64,000 nt of DNA, taken from assembly GCF_000384415.1 (NCBI RefSeq), contig NZ_ARVU01000001.1, positions 1,612,001 through 1,676,000 of the forward strand, read 5' to 3'. The notes below the pieces were generated by a model. It ran no database searches, was not told the DNA's origin, and saw only the letters and a program-made list of their open reading frames with translations. This DNA comes from Cycloclasticus pugetii PS-1 (lineage in GTDB: Bacteria; Pseudomonadota; Gammaproteobacteria; Methylococcales; Cycloclasticaceae). Positions 29,170 through 46,382 of this stretch are shown here, piece after piece. Position numbers and translations under genes: made by a program. Within the stretch, counting starts at the first letter, position 1. Each line of letters begins with the position of its first letter.

Positions 29170-30408
29170 ATGTCCATTAGAAGCCTAACAAACGAAGAAG
29201 TTAACACCTTATTTCCTATCAGAAACTTCTCTGATAATAGCAAGCAGCAACTTAAAGAAATGGTGAAAACGGAACAATATGATTCCAATAGCATATTGTT
29301 TTCTGAGGGTAGTAGTGATGACAAACAAACTTACTTATTAGAAGGTAAAATACAGCTAACGTTTAGTAACAAAAAAGAAAGAATTATAGAAGGTGGTCAA
29401 ATGGAAGCCCGCTTTCCCATTGATAATACATCTCCTCACCAAGCCACAGCCGTTGCACTTGGAGACGTCACCGTTTTATCTGTTAAGCGCAGCACATTAG
29501 ATGATTTATTAAACGAGGTCCTGCCCAATAACAACGTTGAGATTCTTGATAATAGTCAGGACTCCTTACTGTATAACCAACTTTACTTTGAAGTTACCCA
29601 AGAAATGCAAGCGGGTAAACTAATATTGCCATCTATTCCAGAAACGGCGGTAAAAGTTCGCGCTGCTATCACAGACCCTCATGCAACGTCAGACACGATT
29701 GCAAAAATCACCCAACAAGACCCCGCTATTACCGCTCAGCTAATCAAAGTTGCAAATAGTCCCTTATTTAGGGGACGAGAAAAAATCGAAGCCCTCCCGC
29801 TTGCGATCACTCGATTAGGAATAAAAGCCATCAGCAACCTCATTACCACTTTTACCATGAGGATGGTTTTCACAGCTAAAACAAAAGACGTAAAGGATTT
29901 GATCTCAGCGTTATGGTTACATAGCCGAGATGTCTCAGGAATTTGCGCTGTCATGGCAAAAAAGCTTAAGGGCTTTGATACTGACAAGGCCATGTTAGCC
30001 GGCTTGATACACGATATCGGATCCATACCTATTTTAACTCATGCAGACAAACACCCAAATTTAATACATAACAAAACCGAAGTACAACAGACGCTTGAAA
30101 AGCTCTCACCTGTTATCGGCAAGATGGTATTAGAAAAGTGGAATTTCACTGAGGACTTCGTTGAGTTAGCCGTTAATGCTGAAAACTGGGAGCGCAAAAA
30201 TGATCAACCCGCTAACTATACGGACTTAGTCATTGTTGCCCAATTACTCAGTTTTAAAAACACCCCTCACAAAAGTCACTACCCAGAAGCATCTTCTGTA
30301 CCTGCTTATAATCGGCTGACCAAGTTGCTCCGAGACCCTAATGATTCGCTTGATGTGTTGGAAAATGCACAAGAAGAACTGACTATCGTCAAACAACTTT
30401 TCAATTAA
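29170..30408 (+). CDS. cNMP-binding-like / HDOD two-domain regulator
   Basis: 412 residues. Residues 1-125 resemble a cyclic nucleotide-binding fold (LLEGKIQL..., then ARFPIDNTSPHQATAVALGD), but the canonical RxSA phosphate cassette is not intact. Residues about 150-350 form an HDOD domain: ILPSIPETAVKVRAAITDP, ITQQDPAITAQLIKVANSP, LITTFTMRMVF and AGLIHDIGSI. HDOD proteins serve as signalling scaffolds in motility and c-di-GMP pathways. The next gene starts 17 bp downstream and is FliK-like, so a flagellar or motility role is likely. The precise role is unknown. Confidence 0.78.
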   Translation: MSIRSLTNEEVNTLFPIRNFSDNSKQQLKEMVKTEQYDSNSILFSEGSSDDKQTYLLEGKIQLTFSNKKERIIEGGQMEARFPIDNTSPHQATAVALGDVTVLSVKRSTLDDLLNEVLPNNNVEILDNSQDSLLYNQLYFEVTQEMQAGKLILPSIPETAVKVRAAITDPHATSDTIAKITQQDPAITAQLIKVANSPLFRGREKIEALPLAITRLGIKAISNLITTFTMRMVFTAKTKDVKDLISALWLHSRDVSGICAVMAKKLKGFDTDKAMLAGLIHDIGSIPILTHADKHPNLIHNKTEVQQTLEKLSPVIGKMVLEKWNFTEDFVELAVNAENWERKNDQPANYTDLVIVAQLLSFKNTPHKSHYPEASSVPAYNRLTKLLRDPNDSLDVLENAQEELTIVKQLFN

Positions 30409-30425: not shown

Positions 30426-31742
30426 TTGGAAATACCTAGCCTCCCAACCCACGTAACAACAGCAACTAGGGAGACAGCTTTAATTATAGACAAGCTCCAA
30501 ACCGGTCAACCCTTACAAGTAAAAATAGTCGATCAATTAGCCAATAAGCATGACGTTATTATCCATTTGGGTAATCAACTGATAGCGGTAAAAACAAATA
30601 TTCCCGTCACTGTTGGTCAAACGATTAACGTGATAGTCGACAGAACGCCTACTGAACTGATCCTAAACGTTAAACAGCCACCACAAGCCAATCAACAAAT
30701 ACCGTTAAGCTTACGACACTTACTTCCAAAACAAACTCCCGTCAGTGATTTCCATCAGCCACTCGGCGAAGTGCTTGCTGGGATTAATAAGCAAACAGTT
30801 CAATCAGCGCTGACTCAGTCAAAAGAACTGGCGCTGCAATTACTTCAGCTTCGGCGTTTAGCCAATAATATTATTCACACCTTGCCCAAGCAAAAAAATA
30901 TAACAACAGCTGCGGGACTAAAAGACGCAGTCCAGCACTCAGGTGTGTTTTTAGAACCAACCTTACAAAAAATGCTGTTGGACAATAAAGCCGCTTTAAA
31001 AAACCATTCTGATAACGCAACAACCAGACATCAGCTTCCACTCGAACATTTAGCCACTAAAGCATTAAACCAACAATCTACTGAGCTCTCTCGCGTTGAT
31101 ATAAAGGCAAACCTTATTAAACTCATACAATTATTGAATGCCTGGCCAAACTCCACAGCAAGCCAACAAAAAGCGCAGCCACAAAGACTAACGCAAGAAG
31201 CGGCACCATCGTCCTCAGTAAAACCTACCGTTATGACACAACAGGCAAGCGCAGCGCAATTATTCGACCAACAAATAAAGGCCTTACTCAATAAAACAGA
31301 AGGTGCGCTTTCTAAAATAACGCTAAACCAACTGGCAAGCAGCAATATCGATAACAGTACCGGTCGCCAAACATGGCAAATTGAAATTCCGTTTCTAAAC
31401 CAACAAGCTACGGAGTCTGTTTTTCTAAAAATTGAACAAGAAGACCCCTCTCGTAAAAAAACGAATGAGACGAACCCTCAATGGGTCGTTTCGCTTGAAA
31501 TGAACCCTCCAAAATTAGGCCTCATTAAAAACAAACTCACACTTCAAAACCATCAAATCAGCAGTCATTTTTGGGCAGAACAACTCGAAACACGGCAGCT
31601 AATTGATCGTCACTTAAATACCTTCAAAGAACAACTTAACCGCGCCAACTTAAAGACCGATAGTATTCAGTTACAAGAAGGGCCAGGCCCGATAATGCAA
31701 AACAACAAACCTAGCGAATCTATTTTAAGTGAGAAGGCCTAA
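30426..31742 (+). CDS. Second FliK-like (flagellar hook-length control C-domain) protein
   Basis: 438 residues from a TTG start. The first 330 residues are Gln/Ala/Thr-rich and low in conserved structure. The C-terminal 110 residues (GRQTWQIEIPFLNQQ..., LGLIKNKLTLQNHQISSHFWA, then LIDRHLNTFKEQLNRANLKT) follow the pattern of the FliK C-terminal domain. That domain binds FlhB to switch export specificity. The canonical fliK is at 45083-46345, so this is a paralogue. Its stop codon overlaps the start of the FlhB-tail gene, suggesting the two proteins work together. Confidence 0.68.
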   Translation: MEIPSLPTHVTTATRETALIIDKLQTGQPLQVKIVDQLANKHDVIIHLGNQLIAVKTNIPVTVGQTINVIVDRTPTELILNVKQPPQANQQIPLSLRHLLPKQTPVSDFHQPLGEVLAGINKQTVQSALTQSKELALQLLQLRRLANNIIHTLPKQKNITTAAGLKDAVQHSGVFLEPTLQKMLLDNKAALKNHSDNATTRHQLPLEHLATKALNQQSTELSRVDIKANLIKLIQLLNAWPNSTASQQKAQPQRLTQEAAPSSSVKPTVMTQQASAAQLFDQQIKALLNKTEGALSKITLNQLASSNIDNSTGRQTWQIEIPFLNQQATESVFLKIEQEDPSRKKTNETNPQWVVSLEMNPPKLGLIKNKLTLQNHQISSHFWAEQLETRQLIDRHLNTFKEQLNRANLKTDSIQLQEGPGPIMQNNKPSESILSEKA

Positions 31743-32035
31743 TGACTGACATAGTAAACCCTGCTGATATTGCCATTGCTTTAAAATACGACGGCCAACA
31801 TGCACCTACTATAACCGCAAAAGGTAGGGGTGATCTTGCACAGGACATTATTGACCTTGCTATTGCTAATGACATCCCCTTTGATCACAACCCAGAATTA
31901 GTCAAAATACTCAGTAGTATTCCTCTCGGAGATGAAATTCCCGAAGCACTTTATATAGCCGTTGCAGAAGTCATTGCCTTTGCTTATTTACTATCCGGTA
32001 AAGTACCAGACAACTATACAGAGCAACCAGACTAA
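31742..32035 (+). CDS. Free-standing FlhB C-terminal-domain protein (FlhX-like)
   Basis: 97 residues. It begins MTDIVNPADIAIALKYDG and matches the part of FlhB that starts at the autocleavage site. Full-length FlhB in this window reads NPTHFAVALKYEEGG there. The later stretch IPEALYIAVAEVIAFAYLL parallels VPKGLYLAVAQVLAYVYQL. The NPTH motif is NPAD here, so no self-cleavage is needed or expected. It has no membrane segments. Small FlhB-CTD proteins such as FlhX of Helicobacter can support export. It is translationally coupled to the FliK-like gene and overlaps the convergent DUF2802 gene by 4 bp. Confidence 0.85.
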   Translation: MTDIVNPADIAIALKYDGQHAPTITAKGRGDLAQDIIDLAIANDIPFDHNPELVKILSSIPLGDEIPEALYIAVAEVIAFAYLLSGKVPDNYTEQPD

Positions 32036-32424
32036 GCCTTATGTAAGCGAATCAGTAAACTGGCTTCATCAACTGTTAGGTGGCACTTTTCAACAATTTC
32101 ATCAGCGCTAGCCCCTTTTTGCGCCAACTCTATCGCACCTTGGAACTCTTGTAAGTGCTCAAACGTATCGCTTTCTTCTAATTCTTCTATACGGCCCATT
32201 AAACTACGAACACGCCGCTCTGCCCCACCCACGCGCTCATCAACACCTAAACCACTCGCACAAAGGGCTGAAATATCATGTTGAACCGTGTTAAGTTTCT
32301 TACCAAGGTGGCTAACTGTAGACTCTAGTGCTTTAGTTCTACACCATTGTTTATAGGTTAGAAAAAACAGCATCACCACCGCCAACAGCAGCGCGGTAAC
32401 AACTATAGGTATATAAAATTCCAT
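32032..32424 (-). CDS. DUF2802 membrane-anchored protein of the flagellar operon
   Basis: 130 residues from the ATG at 32424, which overlaps the stop of the small upstream ORF as TGATG. A single N-terminal membrane helix (YIPIVVTALLLAVVMLFFLTY) precedes a coiled coil and a C-terminal helix-turn-helix-like end (GASADEIVEKCHLTVDEASLLIRLHK). DUF2802 proteins close the flagellar/chemotaxis operon in Pseudomonas and relatives. Function unknown. Confidence 0.75.
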   Translation of the reverse strand: MEFYIPIVVTALLLAVVMLFFLTYKQWCRTKALESTVSHLGKKLNTVQHDISALCASGLGVDERVGGAERRVRSLMGRIEELEESDTFEHLQEFQGAIELAQKGASADEIVEKCHLTVDEASLLIRLHKA

Positions 32425-32585
32425 CAAACCCTTTCGTCTATATGTTTAGGCACTGAGTCATCCTCAGTATCTTTTGGTCGTTGCTTTTCAATTTTTTTAT
32501 TTGTTTGAGCGTCTGGTTTATTTTTATTGTTCGGCTTAACAGGACGAACAGCTCTACTTGGTGTTATTTTATTTATACTGGCCAT
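32424..32585 (-). CDS. Small 53-residue basic protein in the flagellar operon
   Basis: ATG at 32585 and TGA at 32424-32426, the latter fused with the DUF2802 start (TGATG). It begins MASINKITPSRAVRPVKP and ends VPKHIDERV. It is Lys/Pro/Asn-rich, probably disordered, with no membrane segment. The gene exactly fills the gap between motD (17 bp away) and DUF2802 and has the same strand and coupling. I recall short proteins ending in HIDEYA/V at this position in other gammaproteobacterial flagellar operons, which supports it as real. Function unknown. Confidence 0.65.
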   Translation of the reverse strand: MASINKITPSRAVRPVKPNNKNKPDAQTNKKIEKQRPKDTEDDSVPKHIDERV

Positions 32586-32602: not shown

Positions 32603-33616
32603 TTAATTCAAAAATTTATTAAACCGACTATTTTTGGCTTTCTCAAGCTTCTCTATTTTTTCAGCTGTCGATTCATTTGATTCACTCACATTACCCATTG
32701 GCAACTCAATCGCTTCTTGCAATTCGACCGCTTTCTTTTCAACAACCATAGGCTCTTCTATAACCGCCTGCGCTGATTTTCTTTTTTCTGCAAAACGTGA
32801 AATAGCATTCGATTGAACCACAATAACCACTCGTCTATTCCTTTCACGCCCTTCTGGGGTTCGGTTATCCTCAACTGGGTGGTGTTCGCCATAACCAACC
32901 GCCGCCAAACGTTGCGGATCGATCCCATATTTAGTCAATAAATGAACAACACTGGCTGAGCGTGCGGCAGATAATTCCCAATTAGAAGGGTATTCAAATG
33001 AATTTATCGGAATATTATCCGTGTATCCTTCTACTTGCACCGTATTATTTAATTTTCTAATTGGCTTGGCGACTTGCCATAAGACTCTTAACGCTTCATC
33101 AGACAAGCTCGCATTACCACTTCCAAATAACATTTTGCTGTTCAATTCAATTTCGACCCAAAGGTCATTTTTTTTAACCGACACAAGGTCACTATCTATT
33201 AGTGGGGACAAACCAGACTCCAAATTGTCGGCTAACTGGCCTAAGACTTTCGCTTCACTTATTGTTTGATCACTGTCAATGTCACTATCAACAATTTTAG
33301 CTGTTTGTTGTGGTTTGGCCTCAGAAAATAGCTCAGGAATCATTTTATCGCCCCCTCCTTCCAGCTCCATCAGCCTTTCAATCAGCGCTTTATTTTGCAG
33401 AACATCGCCAATTTCTATTGGATTCATGGTTCTAGGCTGACCTTTAAAAGCGCCATCTAAAGTGCTTGATAACACTCTATATTTCCCTTCATTCACCGAC
33501 GAGACCGAATACATCACCACAAAAAAGGCAAATAAAAGGGTAATGAAGTCCGCATAAGAAACCATCCATCTCTCATGGTTTTCAACCTCTTCAAGCTTTT
33601 TTTTGCGTCTTGCCAT
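32603..33616 (-). CDS. motD: Flagellar stator protein MotD (MotB family)
   Basis: 337 residues. The plug/membrane region WMVSYADFITLLFAFFVVMYS holds the proton-conducting Asp23. The C-terminal OmpA-like peptidoglycan-binding domain (VEGYTDNIPINSFEYPSNWEL, then RLAAVGYGEHHPV, then GRERNRRVVI) spans about 190-275. A Glu/Lys-rich tail of about 60 residues follows. Its position behind motC in the fliA operon identifies it as the Pseudomonas-type MotD rather than MotB. The stator couples ion flow to flagellar rotation. Confidence 0.9.
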   Translation of the reverse strand: MARRKKKLEEVENHERWMVSYADFITLLFAFFVVMYSVSSVNEGKYRVLSSTLDGAFKGQPRTMNPIEIGDVLQNKALIERLMELEGGGDKMIPELFSEAKPQQTAKIVDSDIDSDQTISEAKVLGQLADNLESGLSPLIDSDLVSVKKNDLWVEIELNSKMLFGSGNASLSDEALRVLWQVAKPIRKLNNTVQVEGYTDNIPINSFEYPSNWELSAARSASVVHLLTKYGIDPQRLAAVGYGEHHPVEDNRTPEGRERNRRVVIVVQSNAISRFAEKRKSAQAVIEEPMVVEKKAVELQEAIELPMGNVSESNESTAEKIEKLEKAKNSRFNKFLN

Positions 33617-33619
33617 TGA

Positions 33620-34357
33620 CTATAAATACCCTTGAAGCTTTATCTCAACATTCCGTGGATTTTCACCTTCGGCTATCGCCGCAATCCCCTCTATCATCAT
33701 TTCTCGAGATTGCGAGTATGCTTGAATTTGAACTTTTAATTTGGAGGCCATAGGAATAAATAATAAGTTAGCTAAGCCTACACCATAGATGGTTGCAACA
33801 AATGCGGTTGCAATACCAGCTCCTAATTTACTTGGGTCGGACAAGTTTTGCATAACATGAATAAGACCCATAACAGCACCAATAATGCCGATTGTTGGTG
33901 CATAACTACCCATCGACTCAAACACTTTTGCACTCAGCAACTGCCTTTCTTCTAGCGCTTCTAATTCAAGCATTAATATATCGCGTATTACTTCTGGTTC
34001 AGCTCCATCAACCAATAATTGCATTCCTTTTTTAGCGAACTCATCTTCTTCATCATCAACAACCGCTTCTAGACCGAGTAACCCTTCGCGTCTAGCAATT
34101 TCGCTCCATTCAATAATTTTAGTGATTGACTGTTTTAGCTTAAGCTTAGGAGGAAAGAGCACCCAGCTTAATAACTTAAGTGAACCAAAAAATATTTTTG
34201 CGGGTGATTGCAGCAAAACTGCGCCAATGGTTCCACCCAGCACAATCAAGGCTGCCGGGCCATTAATCAACGCAGACAGGTGGCCACCATCCATAAAATT
34301 GCCACCTAAAATAGCACCAAAGCCAATAATTACGCCCAAAATGGTCAAAATATCCAA
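33620..34357 (-). CDS. motC: Flagellar stator protein MotC (MotA family)
   Basis: 245 residues with four membrane segments. FGAILGGNFMDGGHLSALING and VLGGTIGAVLLQSP are at the N-terminus. The conserved SYAPTIGIIGAVMGLIHVMQNL and GVGLANLLFIPMASKLK carry the transmembrane helix 3-4 prolines. It lies 3 bp before motD. In Pseudomonas the che genes separate fliA from motC; here only 92 bp does. Confidence 0.9.
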   Translation of the reverse strand: MDILTILGVIIGFGAILGGNFMDGGHLSALINGPAALIVLGGTIGAVLLQSPAKIFFGSLKLLSWVLFPPKLKLKQSITKIIEWSEIARREGLLGLEAVVDDEEDEFAKKGMQLLVDGAEPEVIRDILMLELEALEERQLLSAKVFESMGSYAPTIGIIGAVMGLIHVMQNLSDPSKLGAGIATAFVATIYGVGLANLLFIPMASKLKVQIQAYSQSREMMIEGIAAIAEGENPRNVEIKLQGYL

Positions 34358-34449
34358 ATTACACTCTCCTGGTTTAGGGCGAATAACATCGAATGAAAAA
34401 TCATCAATACAGCTCCATTGTCTTAATTATTAGGCTTAATACCTGATGC

Positions 34450-35145
34450 TTATGAGGGCGCATAATTTACCAAACGTGATTTCAAGCGAAGCATTGCTTG
34501 ATTATTAATTTGACACGCTCGTGATTCACTTACCCCTAATACACTGCCTATTTCTTTTAAATTTAGTTCATTATCATAATACAATGATACGACCATTTGC
34601 TCTCTTTCCGGCAAGCTAGAAATGGCCCCTGCTAGTGCCACTCTAAAGTCTTCTTCATTGATGTTTTCTAAAATATTTTCTGTAGAGACTTGGTCGCTTT
34701 CTCCCTCCATCTCATCGGTACTGAATAACCGACAACATGTACTATCTTGCAATATTTTATGGTATTCCTCTATTGTGATATCTAGCAGCGCGGCTATTTC
34801 TGTGTCACGCGCATCTCGCCCAGTTTGCTGTTCAATACGTCGCATCGCTTCAGTAATTTGACGCGCTTTTCTATGCACCGACCTAGGCGTCCAATCGGTG
34901 CGCCTAACATCATCCAACATGGCGCCTCGTATGCGAATTCCAGCATACGTTGCAAAACTAGCCCCATAGTTATCTTTATAGTTATTAGAGGCTTCTAATA
35001 AACCTATCATACCTGCTTGAATAAGGTCTTCTACTAAAACAGTATCCGGTAGTTTCGCTAATAAGTGATAAGCAATGCGTTTAACTAAAGGCGCATGTGT
35101 AGCAACCAGTTCCCCAGCAGTTTTTGCTTGAAGGTTGGTATACAT
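34450..35145 (-). CDS. fliA: Flagellar sigma factor sigma-28 (FliA)
   Basis: 231 residues from the ATG at 35145 (MYTNLQAKTAGELVATHAPL). The frame is open 34 codons further, but that part overlaps flhG and looks non-coding. It directs RNA polymerase to late flagellar promoters. Region 2 (LVKRIAYHLLAKLPDTVLVEDL, then AGMIGLLEA), region 3 (RGAMLDDVRRTDWTPRSVHRK) and region 4 (LPEREQMVVSLYYDNELNLKEIG, then SESRACQINNQA) are all present. No anti-sigma gene flgM is in the window. Confidence 0.95.
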   Translation of the reverse strand: MYTNLQAKTAGELVATHAPLVKRIAYHLLAKLPDTVLVEDLIQAGMIGLLEASNNYKDNYGASFATYAGIRIRGAMLDDVRRTDWTPRSVHRKARQITEAMRRIEQQTGRDARDTEIAALLDITIEEYHKILQDSTCCRLFSTDEMEGESDQVSTENILENINEEDFRVALAGAISSLPEREQMVVSLYYDNELNLKEIGSVLGVSESRACQINNQAMLRLKSRLVNYAPS

Positions 35146-35177
35146 CGCAATGCCGTTCACTCCGTCAACTCTCCTAT

Positions 35178-36056
35178 TTAACTCGCCTGAATAAGCCGTT
35201 CTACAAAAAACTCTAAATAACCTGCCGCACCCCGTTGCACAGGCCATCGATCAATTTTATTTGCTAGGTTTTTAATCGCCACGGCGGCGTGACTATTTGG
35301 CGCAGACTCAAGCACTGCTTGTTGTTTTTGAACTGACTTACGGAGACTTGGATCAAATGGAACAGCACCTGTAAAATACAGCGCTACATCAAGATATTGA
35401 TCCGTGACTTTACAGAGCTTTTGGTACAGCATTTTCCCATGTTGAAGCGACTCCACCATATTGGTAATAATATGGAAGCGAGACAGGCCATGATCACGGT
35501 TTAACAACTTAATCAACGCATACGCATCGGTTAATGACGTTGGTTCATCACAAACAACAATCAACACCTCTTGACAAGCCCTTGCAAAATTAATCACACC
35601 GCCATGAATGCCCGCTGCGGTATCAACCAATAATAAATCAATTTCTTCTTGAAATTCGCTGAACGCATTAATAATCCCAGCTTGTTCCAGCGTGCCCATT
35701 TCTGCCATATGCTGAACACCTGATGAGGCTGGAATGACTTTTAAGCCCTGAGGGCCTTCAACAACAATTTCGTCTAACGTTTTTTCCCCACTTAACACAT
35801 GGGTTAAATTAAATTCCGGGTGCAGCCCCAGCAAAATATCAACATTGGCTAACCCCATATCTGCATCAAGCAGCGCAACTTTTCGGCCTAATTTACAAAA
35901 AGCGATTCCCAGGTTTACAGATAAATTTGTTTTACCCACCCCACCTTTACCACTGGCTACTGCAATCACTCTCACAGGTTTTTTATTTGTCATCTGTTTC
36001 ATTCCTGATGCTTGATTCAAGCCTTCTTTAAACATTCGCATGTCGCGAAGACCCAT
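35178..36056 (-). CDS. flhG: Flagellar number regulator FlhG (FleN, MinD-like ATPase)
   Basis: 292 residues if started at 36056; ATGs at 36041 and 36035 are equally good. The deviant Walker A motif IAVASGKGGVGKTNLSVNLG and the following LLDADMGLANVDILLG identify the MinD/ParA family. LNQASGMKQM before it resembles the DQAxxLR activator motif by which FlhG stimulates the FlhF GTPase, so the start must lie upstream of it. It restricts flagellar number. It overlaps the end of flhF and precedes fliA. Confidence 0.93.
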   Translation of the reverse strand: MGLRDMRMFKEGLNQASGMKQMTNKKPVRVIAVASGKGGVGKTNLSVNLGIAFCKLGRKVALLDADMGLANVDILLGLHPEFNLTHVLSGEKTLDEIVVEGPQGLKVIPASSGVQHMAEMGTLEQAGIINAFSEFQEEIDLLLVDTAAGIHGGVINFARACQEVLIVVCDEPTSLTDAYALIKLLNRDHGLSRFHIITNMVESLQHGKMLYQKLCKVTDQYLDVALYFTGAVPFDPSLRKSVQKQQAVLESAPNSHAAVAIKNLANKIDRWPVQRGAAGYLEFFVERLIQAS

Positions 36057-39470: not shown

Positions 39471-40616
39471 CTAATCGGTGTTGTTTGTATATTTTTTGTA
39501 TTCATCTGGAATAGAAATATCACTTGGCGCGACTGGTTTCTTCCAGCGCTTTTGTGTTGCAATTCGTAATTGATAAACATATGCCAAGACTTGAGCTACC
39601 GCTAGGTAAAGCCCTTTAGGGACTTCTTGATCAATTTCCGTCGTAAAGAATAAGGCCCTAGCTAAAGGTGGTGCTGAAACCAGCGTAACCCCATTACCAA
39701 CCGCAATATTCCTTATTTTCGCGGCTATTAAATCCGCACCTTTAGCAACAACGATGGGGGCATCGCTTCCACCTTCCTCGTATTTAAGTGCTACTGCAAA
39801 ATGCGTGGGGTTGGTCACAATAACATCAGCCTGTGGTACCGCTTCTAGCATTCTTCCTTGTGACATTTCTTGTTGCAATTGACGTATTTTACCTTTTACT
39901 TCGGGCCGCCCTTCGGTCTGCTTCATTTCATCTTTCACTTCTTGAAGCGTCATTTTTAGCTTTTTCTTGTATTCCCATAAACTAAACGGCACATCAATCG
40001 CCACGACCAATAATAAAGACGAGCATAAAATGACAAAAGATAAGGTCATCACATCGCTGGCTCGAAGCAAGGCATTTTCTAACGGTAATTGACTAAGATA
40101 GATAAACTCGCGCAAATAGATATCCACTAACAAAGCCATAATGCCTAATATTAAGCCAAACTTAAGTAAAGATTTAACCAGCTCTATTAGACTGCGCATC
40201 GCGAACATTCGCTTAAAGCCTTCAAGCGGATTCATTTTGCTTGCCTTAGGAGCAAAGGCTTCAGCACTAAATGACCAGCCCCCCATCGCAATAGGAGCCG
40301 CTAACGCAGCAACCACCATCGCCGCTAAAAAAGGGGCCACGAACATTAGTGCCTCCTGCATAGCGAACTGAAGGCTGTTAATTGATGCTAAAGGGTCAAA
40401 CAAAGTGCTTCTTTCTATCGTAAAAGCCTCTTCCATCACGCGCCACATGCCTTTCATGATGCGCTCACCGGTCATCCAAATCATCACCGAGCCCACCATT
40501 AAAACAACGACCGTATTCAGTTCTTTAGAGCGTGCAATATCACCCTTTTTTCGGGCGTCTTCCTCACGTTTGGCGGTGGGTTCTTCGGTTTTTTCTTGGT
40601 CGTTATCAGTCGCCAT
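39471..40616 (-). CDS. flhB: Flagellar export switch protein FlhB
   Basis: 381 residues. The N-terminal DQEKTEEPTAKREEDARKKG is the family signature, with four membrane helices between about 30 and 210. The autocleavage site is Asn269-Pro270 in VTNPTHFAVALKY. After cleavage the C-terminal part responds to FliK by switching export from hook to filament proteins. A free-standing relative of this C-terminal part is encoded at 31742-32035. The gene abuts fliR. Confidence 0.97.
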   Translation of the reverse strand: MATDNDQEKTEEPTAKREEDARKKGDIARSKELNTVVVLMVGSVMIWMTGERIMKGMWRVMEEAFTIERSTLFDPLASINSLQFAMQEALMFVAPFLAAMVVAALAAPIAMGGWSFSAEAFAPKASKMNPLEGFKRMFAMRSLIELVKSLLKFGLILGIMALLVDIYLREFIYLSQLPLENALLRASDVMTLSFVILCSSLLLVVAIDVPFSLWEYKKKLKMTLQEVKDEMKQTEGRPEVKGKIRQLQQEMSQGRMLEAVPQADVIVTNPTHFAVALKYEEGGSDAPIVVAKGADLIAAKIRNIAVGNGVTLVSAPPLARALFFTTEIDQEVPKGLYLAVAQVLAYVYQLRIATQKRWKKPVAPSDISIPDEYKKYTNNTD

Positions 40617-45082: not shown

Positions 45083-46345
45083 TCAGGCAAAGTCACTAAA
45101 TAAACCAGTGTATCGTCGTACTTGTTCAGCATCTTGTGAATCAAACATTGATTCACCGGTGTCCCGATTAAACTCATCTGATTGAGCCATTCCACCTTCT
45201 TGGCTCTTGGATGCTTGTTCACGTTGATCACTAAATGAATGTTGCGATACATCAATATCCACCACGTTGACGTTTTGCTCATTCAACATATCGCGTAAGC
45301 GGGGAAGAGCCGCCTCAATGGCTTCTCTTGTTGCACCATGTTGTGCAGTAAATGACACCATTGCTTGATCATTTTGCATTTGGACTCTGACCTCAATAGG
45401 CCCCATATGCTGAGGGTTCAACCTAATCTGTGCGCCAGACATGGATTGGCCCACTACCCACTGTACTCGCTGGGTGAAGTGCTCCCCCCACTTCTGACTG
45501 TTCATTGGTGTATCAAGCTGCAAATTTGCCTTATCAATTACGGCATGTTGTGTTTGCCCAGCAACCGGTGCCCCTACATTTAATAACAAGCCTTCTGTTG
45601 CTGGTAAAGCTTTACTGCCTGCCGTTTGCTGAGTAAACATGGAGTTTACCGTATCAGACACTGTGTTTTTTAAATCACCTACAAGTGCATCAGGCAGACT
45701 TGTAGATTGAGGCTTATTTAAGGATGGCAGCGTAGCCGACGAATTCAAAAAATTCACTTCGCCACCTTTCCCATTCAATCTACCCCTCTGGTCCGGCAAC
45801 CGTCCGGCCGTTAGTGGGTCAAACACTATATCTTTGTCGCGCACATTAACATTAGCCAATATATCGCTGTTTAATGGGCCGCCCAAAGCTGCCGCTGGTG
45901 GCAATTCATTGCCGCTAATCGCAGCCATAGCTTCCCCTGCTTCAAGCTTAGGTTCAACTAATATTACGCCTGCCTCTGTGGGTATCTCAGCTGTATTTTC
46001 TACGATAATGACTTCTTCATGCAGTTGCCCTGAAGCGTTAGATAGCACCTCGGTAACCGTTGCCGTTTGTTCTGATTGAGTTTCATCAGCCGTTACAATC
46101 TTGGATGATGAAGCAGCTTCCGGCGCATTAGTCTTATTAACAACAGCCGCCGTGTTACCAGTGTTTTCAGCATGTTTATCCGATGATGCTGGTTCATGAC
46201 TCTGCCTATTAAGACGGTCTATATTTTTTTCAAAATGTTTTGAAAACCCGTCATCGTTTGAGCGACTGGAATCACTTATAACCGAATCAGCAGCACCCTT
46301 CGAGGCGCTACCCATCTGTGGACTTAATATAGCTGGTACGTCCAT
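45083..46345 (-). CDS. fliK: Flagellar hook-length control protein FliK
   Basis: About 420 residues. I prefer the ATG at 46345 (GGAG 7-8 bases upstream); ATGs at 46351 and 46357 are alternatives. The first 300 residues are low-complexity, the secreted ruler. The C-terminal switch domain (WGEHFTQRVQWVVGQSMSGA, RLNPQHMGPIEVRVQMQNDQ, ALPRLRDMLNEQNVNVVDIDV) is canonical. It has its own sigma-54-type promoter and terminator, so it is a single-gene unit. A FliK-like paralogue is at 30426. Confidence 0.93.
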   Translation of the reverse strand: MDVPAILSPQMGSASKGAADSVISDSSRSNDDGFSKHFEKNIDRLNRQSHEPASSDKHAENTGNTAAVVNKTNAPEAASSSKIVTADETQSEQTATVTEVLSNASGQLHEEVIIVENTAEIPTEAGVILVEPKLEAGEAMAAISGNELPPAAALGGPLNSDILANVNVRDKDIVFDPLTAGRLPDQRGRLNGKGGEVNFLNSSATLPSLNKPQSTSLPDALVGDLKNTVSDTVNSMFTQQTAGSKALPATEGLLLNVGAPVAGQTQHAVIDKANLQLDTPMNSQKWGEHFTQRVQWVVGQSMSGAQIRLNPQHMGPIEVRVQMQNDQAMVSFTAQHGATREAIEAALPRLRDMLNEQNVNVVDIDVSQHSFSDQREQASKSQEGGMAQSDEFNRDTGESMFDSQDAEQVRRYTGLFSDFA

Positions 46346-46382
46346 TGCCATCTCCATATTGCTTTAAATGTGTTTACAACAG

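What the first reader, a model, noticed from the sequence alone, without database searches (positions are those of the whole stretch)
30426..32035. A FliK-like protein coupled to a free FlhB C-terminal domain
The two genes overlap by one base. One ends in a FliK-type switch domain; the other is the FlhB cytoplasmic tail beginning exactly at the cleavage site, with NPTH changed to NPAD. FliK acts on the FlhB tail, so these look like a duplicated ruler/switch pair. It could compete with or tune the canonical pair encoded 8-15 kb away, or serve another export event. A preceding HDOD regulator may belong to the same unit.
Basis: partly seen in the sequence, partly recalled or inferred. Interest (0 to 1): 0.6.

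Follow-up and report, generated by a model that had tools for sequence, protein, structure and literature searches.

The report
Flagellar FliK-like gene paired with FlhX
Next to its flagellar genes this marine bacterium carries a tightly coupled gene pair, a folded relative of the flagellar "switch" protein FliK and a free-standing copy of the FlhB tail on which FliK acts; the pair is real, very common in flagellated bacteria, already present in annotations, and almost unstudied.

Summary
30426-31742 encodes a FliK switch-domain protein and 31742-32035, overlapping by one base, a 97-aa free FlhB C-terminal domain; the genome also has one canonical flhB and one canonical fliK. It is not a local oddity: in 274 gammaproteobacterial genomes about 100 of 146 flagellated ones carry this free FlhB tail (FlhX type), 111 of 114 loci read have a FliK-domain gene directly upstream, and a second FliK occurs in 97/101 genomes with FlhX against 0/45 without. 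FlhX is an ancient clade under strong purifying selection; it lost the NPTH cleavage site but kept the pocket where early export substrates dock. The FliK partner does not look like a ruler: it is predicted folded (S1/OB-like barrel, helical domain, switch domain) with a basic N-half, and keeps a FliK-like C-terminal tail in which the canonical aromatic residue never occurs. The HDOD gene is not a regular part. Known kin: Helicobacter HP1575/FlhX, called a 'spare part' for FlhB, and Pseudomonas putida PP4328-PP4329, a FleQ-regulated pair. Most likely an accessory module acting on the flagellar export switch; the exact step is inferred. New member of a known, poorly understood kind.

The parts
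30426..31742 (+). FliK-like gene ('FliK2' here), 438 aa, TTG start: predicted S1/OB-like barrel (about 29-82), helical domain (88-248), Pro-rich linker, long helix (276-306), FliK/PscP-type switch domain (316-418), C-terminal tail ESILSEKA
   Evidence: PF02120 58.7 bits; AlphaFold2 mean pLDDT 84.5, pTM 0.78; Foldseek and VIA matches to PscP SS domain, FliK C-domain and S1/OB folds; tail motif
31742..32035 (+). Stand-alone FlhB C-terminal domain (FlhX type), 97 aa, no membrane part, no NPTH cleavage site
   Evidence: PF01312 model 255-334, 71.5 bits; clade separate from FlhB, 100/100; dN/dS 0.034-0.049 among Cycloclasticus relatives where it could be computed
31740..31744 (+). TAATG stop/start overlap that couples the two genes
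   Evidence: sequence; 79 of 109 related pairs overlap by 4 or 1 nt, 87 of 109 have no gap
39471..40616 (-). Canonical flhB with NPTH (context, not part of the pair)
   Evidence: only full-length PF01312 in the genome
45083..46357 (-). Canonical fliK, the probable ruler (context, not part of the pair); acidic N-half, tail GLFSDFA
   Evidence: other PF02120 place in the genome, 85.9 bits; composition and tail

Best explanation
The two genes are one flagellum-linked accessory module of the flagellar type III export gate. FlhX is a soluble, permanently untethered version of the FlhB tail (FlhB_CC): same fold core and same early-substrate pocket, but no membrane part and no cleavage site. FliK2 is a folded, probably cytoplasmic relative of FliK that keeps the switch domain and a modified C-terminal tail but no ruler. 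Shown here: identity, pairing, co-occurrence, dependence on a flagellum, ancient origin, retained pocket, altered tail, predicted folded architecture. Inferred: that FliK2 handles FlhX (binds or delivers it) and that FlhX can stand in for FlhB_CC at the gate, supporting or restoring export of early (rod/hook) substrates, so that the pair tunes the early-to-late switch that canonical FliK triggers.
For: Co-occurrence: second FliK-domain protein in 97 of 101 FlhX-bearing and 0 of 45 FlhX-less flagellated genomes, Fisher p 2e-33, not corrected for kinship. Adjacency 111/114, and outside Gammaproteobacteria in 29 of 40 loci, some weak. Conserved stop/start overlap. FlhX is one clade under strong purifying selection. 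Pocket residues named for Salmonella FlhB_CC (A286, P287, A341, L344; PMC13344023) are kept in FlhX at 91, 100, 100 and 99% (I or L) while NPTH is absent. FliK2 tail L-hydrophobic-D-x-x-A resembles canonical hydrophobic-D-x-[YF]-A, and the last residues of FliK are proposed to act on FlhB_CC. Literature: HP1575 'acts as a spare part' when FlhB_CC is deleted (title cited in PMC3040844); [quoted passage not shown] putida (PMC5026340).
Against: No direct evidence of binding: with FlhX and FliK2 in one chain the FliK2 tail stayed disordered (pLDDT about 40), though that run had mostly unpaired rows and gave no interface score. FlhX lost R302 and the PPLARAL(Y) motif that all or nearly all FlhB keep, and its 281-285 loop is two residues shorter; deleting that whole loop in Salmonella FlhB abolishes secretion (PMC3640470), so FlhX may not work as a replacement. 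About a third of flagellated gammas do without the pair.
Confidence: 0.5

Rival explanations
1. Antagonist or buffer: the pair does not stand in for FlhB_CC. FliK2, with its non-aromatic tail, occupies FlhB_CC without ejecting it, and/or FlhX soaks up FliK or early substrates, delaying the switch until enough hook is built.
For: Residue -2 of the tail is aromatic in 41/41 canonical FliK and in 0/112 FliK2; FlhX keeps the docking pocket but lost R302, PPLAR and part of the 281-285 loop, as expected of a binder that cannot drive export.
Against: HP1575 was reported to permit export rather than block it (title only). No binding evidence here.
Confidence: 0.25
2. FliK2 is a second ruler that sets an alternative hook length, with FlhX as its dedicated target.
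For: It has a bona fide FliK switch domain and a pairing partner.
Against: Predicted folded through most of its length, pTM 0.78; basic N-half against mean net charge about -14 in canonical N-halves; nearly all FlhX genomes carry another FliK-domain protein besides.
Confidence: 0.06
3. The pair serves a non-flagellar export event or an injectisome.
For: The switch domain also resembles the injectisome PscP SS domain, and annotation calls FlhX an 'EscU/YscU/HrcU family' protein.
Against: Confined to genomes with full-length FlhB apart from an 81%-complete draft; broken in two frames in a complete genome without full FlhB; convergent with che/mot/DUF2802 genes; FleQ-regulated in P. putida.
Confidence: 0.05
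4. A recent duplication or decaying relic of the local flhB and fliK.
For: None beyond the homology itself.
Against: FlhX and FlhB are two clades at 100/100; FlhX dN/dS about 0.04; FliK2 has a conserved N-terminal architecture unlike that of canonical FliK.
Confidence: 0.01

Closest known systems
Pseudomonas putida PP4328-PP4329 and the P. aeruginosa pair next to ccmA
   Same: Same order, same domains, stop/start overlap; the P. aeruginosa FliK-like protein matches the FliK2 profile at 233 bits; P. putida pair reported as a FleQ-activated operon and as overlapping by four bases
   Different: Here an HDOD gene precedes it instead of the ccm genes; the FliK2 sequence is only about 15-28% identical to non-Cycloclasticus members
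Helicobacter pylori FlhX / HP1575
   Same: Stand-alone FlhB C-terminal homologue beside a full FlhB; reported as a 'spare part' for FlhB_CC (title)
   Different: Sequence not compared here; coupling to a FliK-like gene in H. pylori not checked. 'flhX-fliK' as a locus is mentioned for Nitratiruptor
Bacillus FlhB-like protein (YlqH position, between rnhB and sucC)
   Same: Stand-alone PF01312 C-part, 71.9 bits, overlapping the upstream gene by four bases
   Different: Upstream 567-aa protein shows no significant FliK match, so pairing with a FliK relative is unproven there
Canonical FliK and FlhB
   Same: Switch domain (PF02120) and FlhB_CC fold core with early-substrate pocket
   Different: No ruler-like N-half and non-aromatic tail position -2 in FliK2; no membrane domain, no NPTH, no R302/PPLAR motif in FlhX

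Membership tests
Stand-alone FlhB C-terminal (FlhX-type) proteins | Only the C-terminal part of PF01312, no membrane domain | tested here: met
   97 aa, model 255-334
Stand-alone FlhB C-terminal (FlhX-type) proteins | Separate full-length FlhB in the same genome | tested here: met
   39471-40616, 420 bits
Stand-alone FlhB C-terminal (FlhX-type) proteins | Groups apart from FlhB in a tree | tested here: met
   one clade with 112 others, 100/100
NCBIfam TIGR00789 flhB_rel | Curated score cut-off | tested here: not met
   73.4 bits against 117.35, although it is the best NCBIfam match
FlhB (full-length export gate protein) | N-terminal membrane domain | tested here: not met
   protein is 97 aa
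FlhB (full-length export gate protein) | NPTH autocleavage site | tested here: not met
   NPAD here; no NPxH in any of 113 FlhX
FliK switch-domain (PF02120) proteins | Domain score over the curated cut-off | tested here: met
   58.7 against 29.8 bits; all 77 aligned members match PF02120 at E 0.1 or better
Canonical FliK (secreted ruler) | Long unfolded, acidic N-terminal half | tested here: not met
   predicted folded; net charge positive in the N-half. No fold of canonical FliK was run as a control
Canonical FliK (secreted ruler) | C-terminal tail with aromatic residue at position -2 | tested here: not met
   0/112 FliK2 against 41/41 canonical
Canonical FliK (secreted ruler) | Export through the flagellum | not testable with these tools
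   needs a secretion assay
Pseudomonas PP4328-PP4329 type pair | Adjacent co-directional FliK-domain gene and FlhX with stop/start overlap | tested here: met
   window order and TAATG; P. aeruginosa record has the same order and an overlap

The most novel reading that the evidence does not exclude
FlhX re-arms the export gate: after canonical FliK ejects FlhB_CC, FlhX, held and delivered by FliK2 whose altered tail binds without ejecting, takes the vacant place and restores early-substrate export, so that a switch thought irreversible is reversible in most flagellated Gammaproteobacteria.
Probability: 0.12. Interest if true: 0.8.

Novelty: new member of a known kind. Interest (0 to 1): 0.42.

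Why it matters
How FliK flips FlhB is a long-standing question, and a 2026 paper proposes that FliK ejects the cleaved FlhB tail (PMC13344023). A widespread natural pair made of a free FlhB tail and a ruler-less FliK is a ready-made test of that idea: if the free tail can replace the ejected one, the switch may not be irreversible. It also means that roughly two thirds of the flagellated Gammaproteobacteria sampled carry an extra candidate switch component that has hardly been studied.

Tried and rejected
Recent local duplication: rejected by the tree and dN/dS. HDOD as part of the unit: upstream in only 6 loci. Conserved altered cleavage site: rejected, N-P is present near the start in 9 of 113 only. 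Natural FliK-FlhX gene fusion: none among the loci read. Complex: folding a read-through chain of the pair from L098 (stop read as a residue) left the FliK2 tail disordered and gave no interface score; inconclusive. FlhF (polar flagella) as the reason for presence or absence: FlhF matches occur both with and without the pair, read by eye, not tabulated. Pairing in Bacillus with a FliK relative: no significant match, inconclusive. RNA binding by the OB-like barrel: only a fold resemblance (Z up to 7.8, within the range that unrelated models reach), not claimed. Genome counts were transcribed by hand from the tables. E. coli and Salmonella were not searched specifically for FlhX.

Full report
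What is there. The window lies in a 2.38-Mb single-contig genome whose nearest named relatives are Cycloclasticus. At 30426-31742 a TTG-started ORF encodes 438 aa; at 31742-32035 an ATG-started ORF encodes 97 aa; stop and start overlap as TAATG. The first matches PF02120 Flg_hook at residues 343-422 (58.7 bits, cut-off 29.8), the second only the end of PF01312 (model 255-334 of 335, 71.5 bits, cut-off 24.4). The own genome holds exactly two places for each family: this pair, canonical flhB at 39471-40616 and canonical fliK at 45083-46357.

How common it is. Of 274 gammaproteobacterial genomes, 150 hold a PF01312 match. A profile of the free FlhB tail (alignment A1) picks out stand-alone copies in short open frames, which mostly score well above full FlhB, and about 100 genomes have one. 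I read 115 loci; one is a truncated full FlhB. In 111 of the remaining 114 a FliK-domain gene lies directly upstream on the same strand (exceptions L064, L065, L126). In 79 of 109 pairs the genes overlap by 4 or 1 nt and 87 have no gap. Among 146 genomes with full FlhB, 97 of 101 FlhX-bearing ones have at least two FliK-domain proteins and 0 of 45 FlhX-less ones do (Fisher p 2e-33, kinship not corrected; counts transcribed from earlier tables). Of the four exceptions, three (G098, G099, G178) have the FliK partner next to FlhX in the locus read (L137, L092, L109). The stand-alone tail is also frequent elsewhere in the phylum, with a FliK-domain gene upstream in 29 of 40 loci, some of these matches weak. 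One complete genome without full-length FlhB has FlhX broken into two pieces next to a FliK partner, and two further genomes hold only fragments.

Surroundings. Downstream and convergent lies the end of the flagellar/chemotaxis cluster: CheW/CheV-like genes in 41 loci and DUF2802 in 29, as here (DUF2802 at 32032-32427, Mot genes beyond). The HDOD gene upstream was found in only 6 loci and is not a regular part. In Pseudomonas aeruginosa the pair sits beside ccmA and is annotated 'flagellar hook-length control protein FliK' and 'EscU/YscU/HrcU family'.

FlhX. 113 FlhX and 30 FlhB tails fall into two groups at 100/100 support, so the split is old. Among Cycloclasticus relatives dN/dS is 0.034-0.049 where it can be computed. 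Position by position (113 FlhX against 17 FlhB), NPTH is gone; the residues listed for the Salmonella early-substrate pocket, A286, P287, A341 and L344 (PMC13344023), are kept (91%, 100%, 100%, and I or L in 99%). R302 (100% in FlhB) and the PPLARAL(Y) stretch are lost, with one residue deleted there. The loop between Y279 and P287 is five residues in 105 of 113 FlhX and seven in 29 of 30 FlhB. Deletion of residues 281-285 of this loop abolishes secretion in Salmonella (PMC3640470). FlhX therefore looks like a binder that keeps the dock but is not a plain copy.

FliK2. AlphaFold2 on 77 aligned members gives mean pLDDT 84.5 and pTM 0.78: barrel 29-82, helical domain 88-248, helix 276-306, switch domain 316-418; residues 1-17 are low. 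The switch domain matches the PscP SS domain (Foldseek probability 1.00, E 4e-3) and the FliK C-domain (sequence match to 2rrl E 1.5e-7). The barrel resembles S1/OB folds (Tex Z 7.8 over 73 residues, 2.7 A), a level that unrelated models can also reach, so only the fold type is suggested. Mean net charge is +2.5 in the barrel and +4.3 in the helical part against about -14 in canonical N-halves. This does not look like a ruler; a fold of canonical FliK as control was not run. The C-terminal tail is conserved as L-hydrophobic-D-x-x-A; canonical FliK has hydrophobic-D-x-[YF]-A. Position -2 is aromatic in 41 of 41 canonical and 0 of 112 FliK2 tails.

How it may work. A 2026 study proposes that FliK, through its last five residues, ejects the cleaved FlhB tail from the gate, that loss of this tail ends early secretion, and that the tail is released inside the cell and degraded (PMC13344023). 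Helicobacter pylori HP1575 is reported, by its title, to act as a 'spare part' when that tail is deleted (cited in PMC3040844; the paper itself was not available). In P. putida the PP4328-PP4329 promoter is activated by FleQ (PMC5026340). From this I infer that FlhX can act at the gate in place of, or in competition with, FlhB_CC, and that FliK2 is its dedicated handler. Replacement and antagonism cannot be told apart here. The one test of a complex open to me, a read-through chain of both proteins from L098, left the tail disordered (pLDDT about 40) and gave no interface score; it neither supports nor excludes binding.

What is known and what is new. Stand-alone FlhB tails (FlhX, YlqH, TIGR00789-like) and their neighbourhood to a FliK gene are on record, so this is a new member of a known kind; it falls below the TIGR00789 cut-off (73.4 against 117). 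I found no paper that studies the pair's function, within a library that lacks most subscription journals.

Noticed in passing
29170-30408: HDOD protein with an N-terminal cyclic-nucleotide-binding-like domain (PF08668 139.7 bits, PF00027 35.5 bits), ending 17 nt before the FliK-like start; the same neighbour was found in 6 of the loci read only.
   Followed up: partly
32032-32427: DUF2802 gene runs tail-to-tail into flhX with a 4-nt overlap of the two 3' ends; DUF2802 is a frequent convergent neighbour of the pair (29 loci).
   Followed up: partly
30426: The FliK-like gene starts with TTG without an obvious ribosome-binding site; the true start may differ.
   Followed up: no
32603-35247: The Mot-like pair lies directly after fliA with no chemotaxis genes between, whereas in many relatives CheW-like and ParA-like genes lie between mot and the FlhX pair.
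   Followed up: no
L159 (G034): A complete gammaproteobacterial genome without full-length FlhB keeps a FliK-like gene with an intact tail next to an FlhX broken in two frames.
   Followed up: partly
L280:2286-3989: Bacillus velezensis protein upstream of the FlhB-like gene is annotated 'glycosyl transferase' but has no significant Pfam match of that kind and occupies the YlqG position; the annotation looks wrong.
   Followed up: partly
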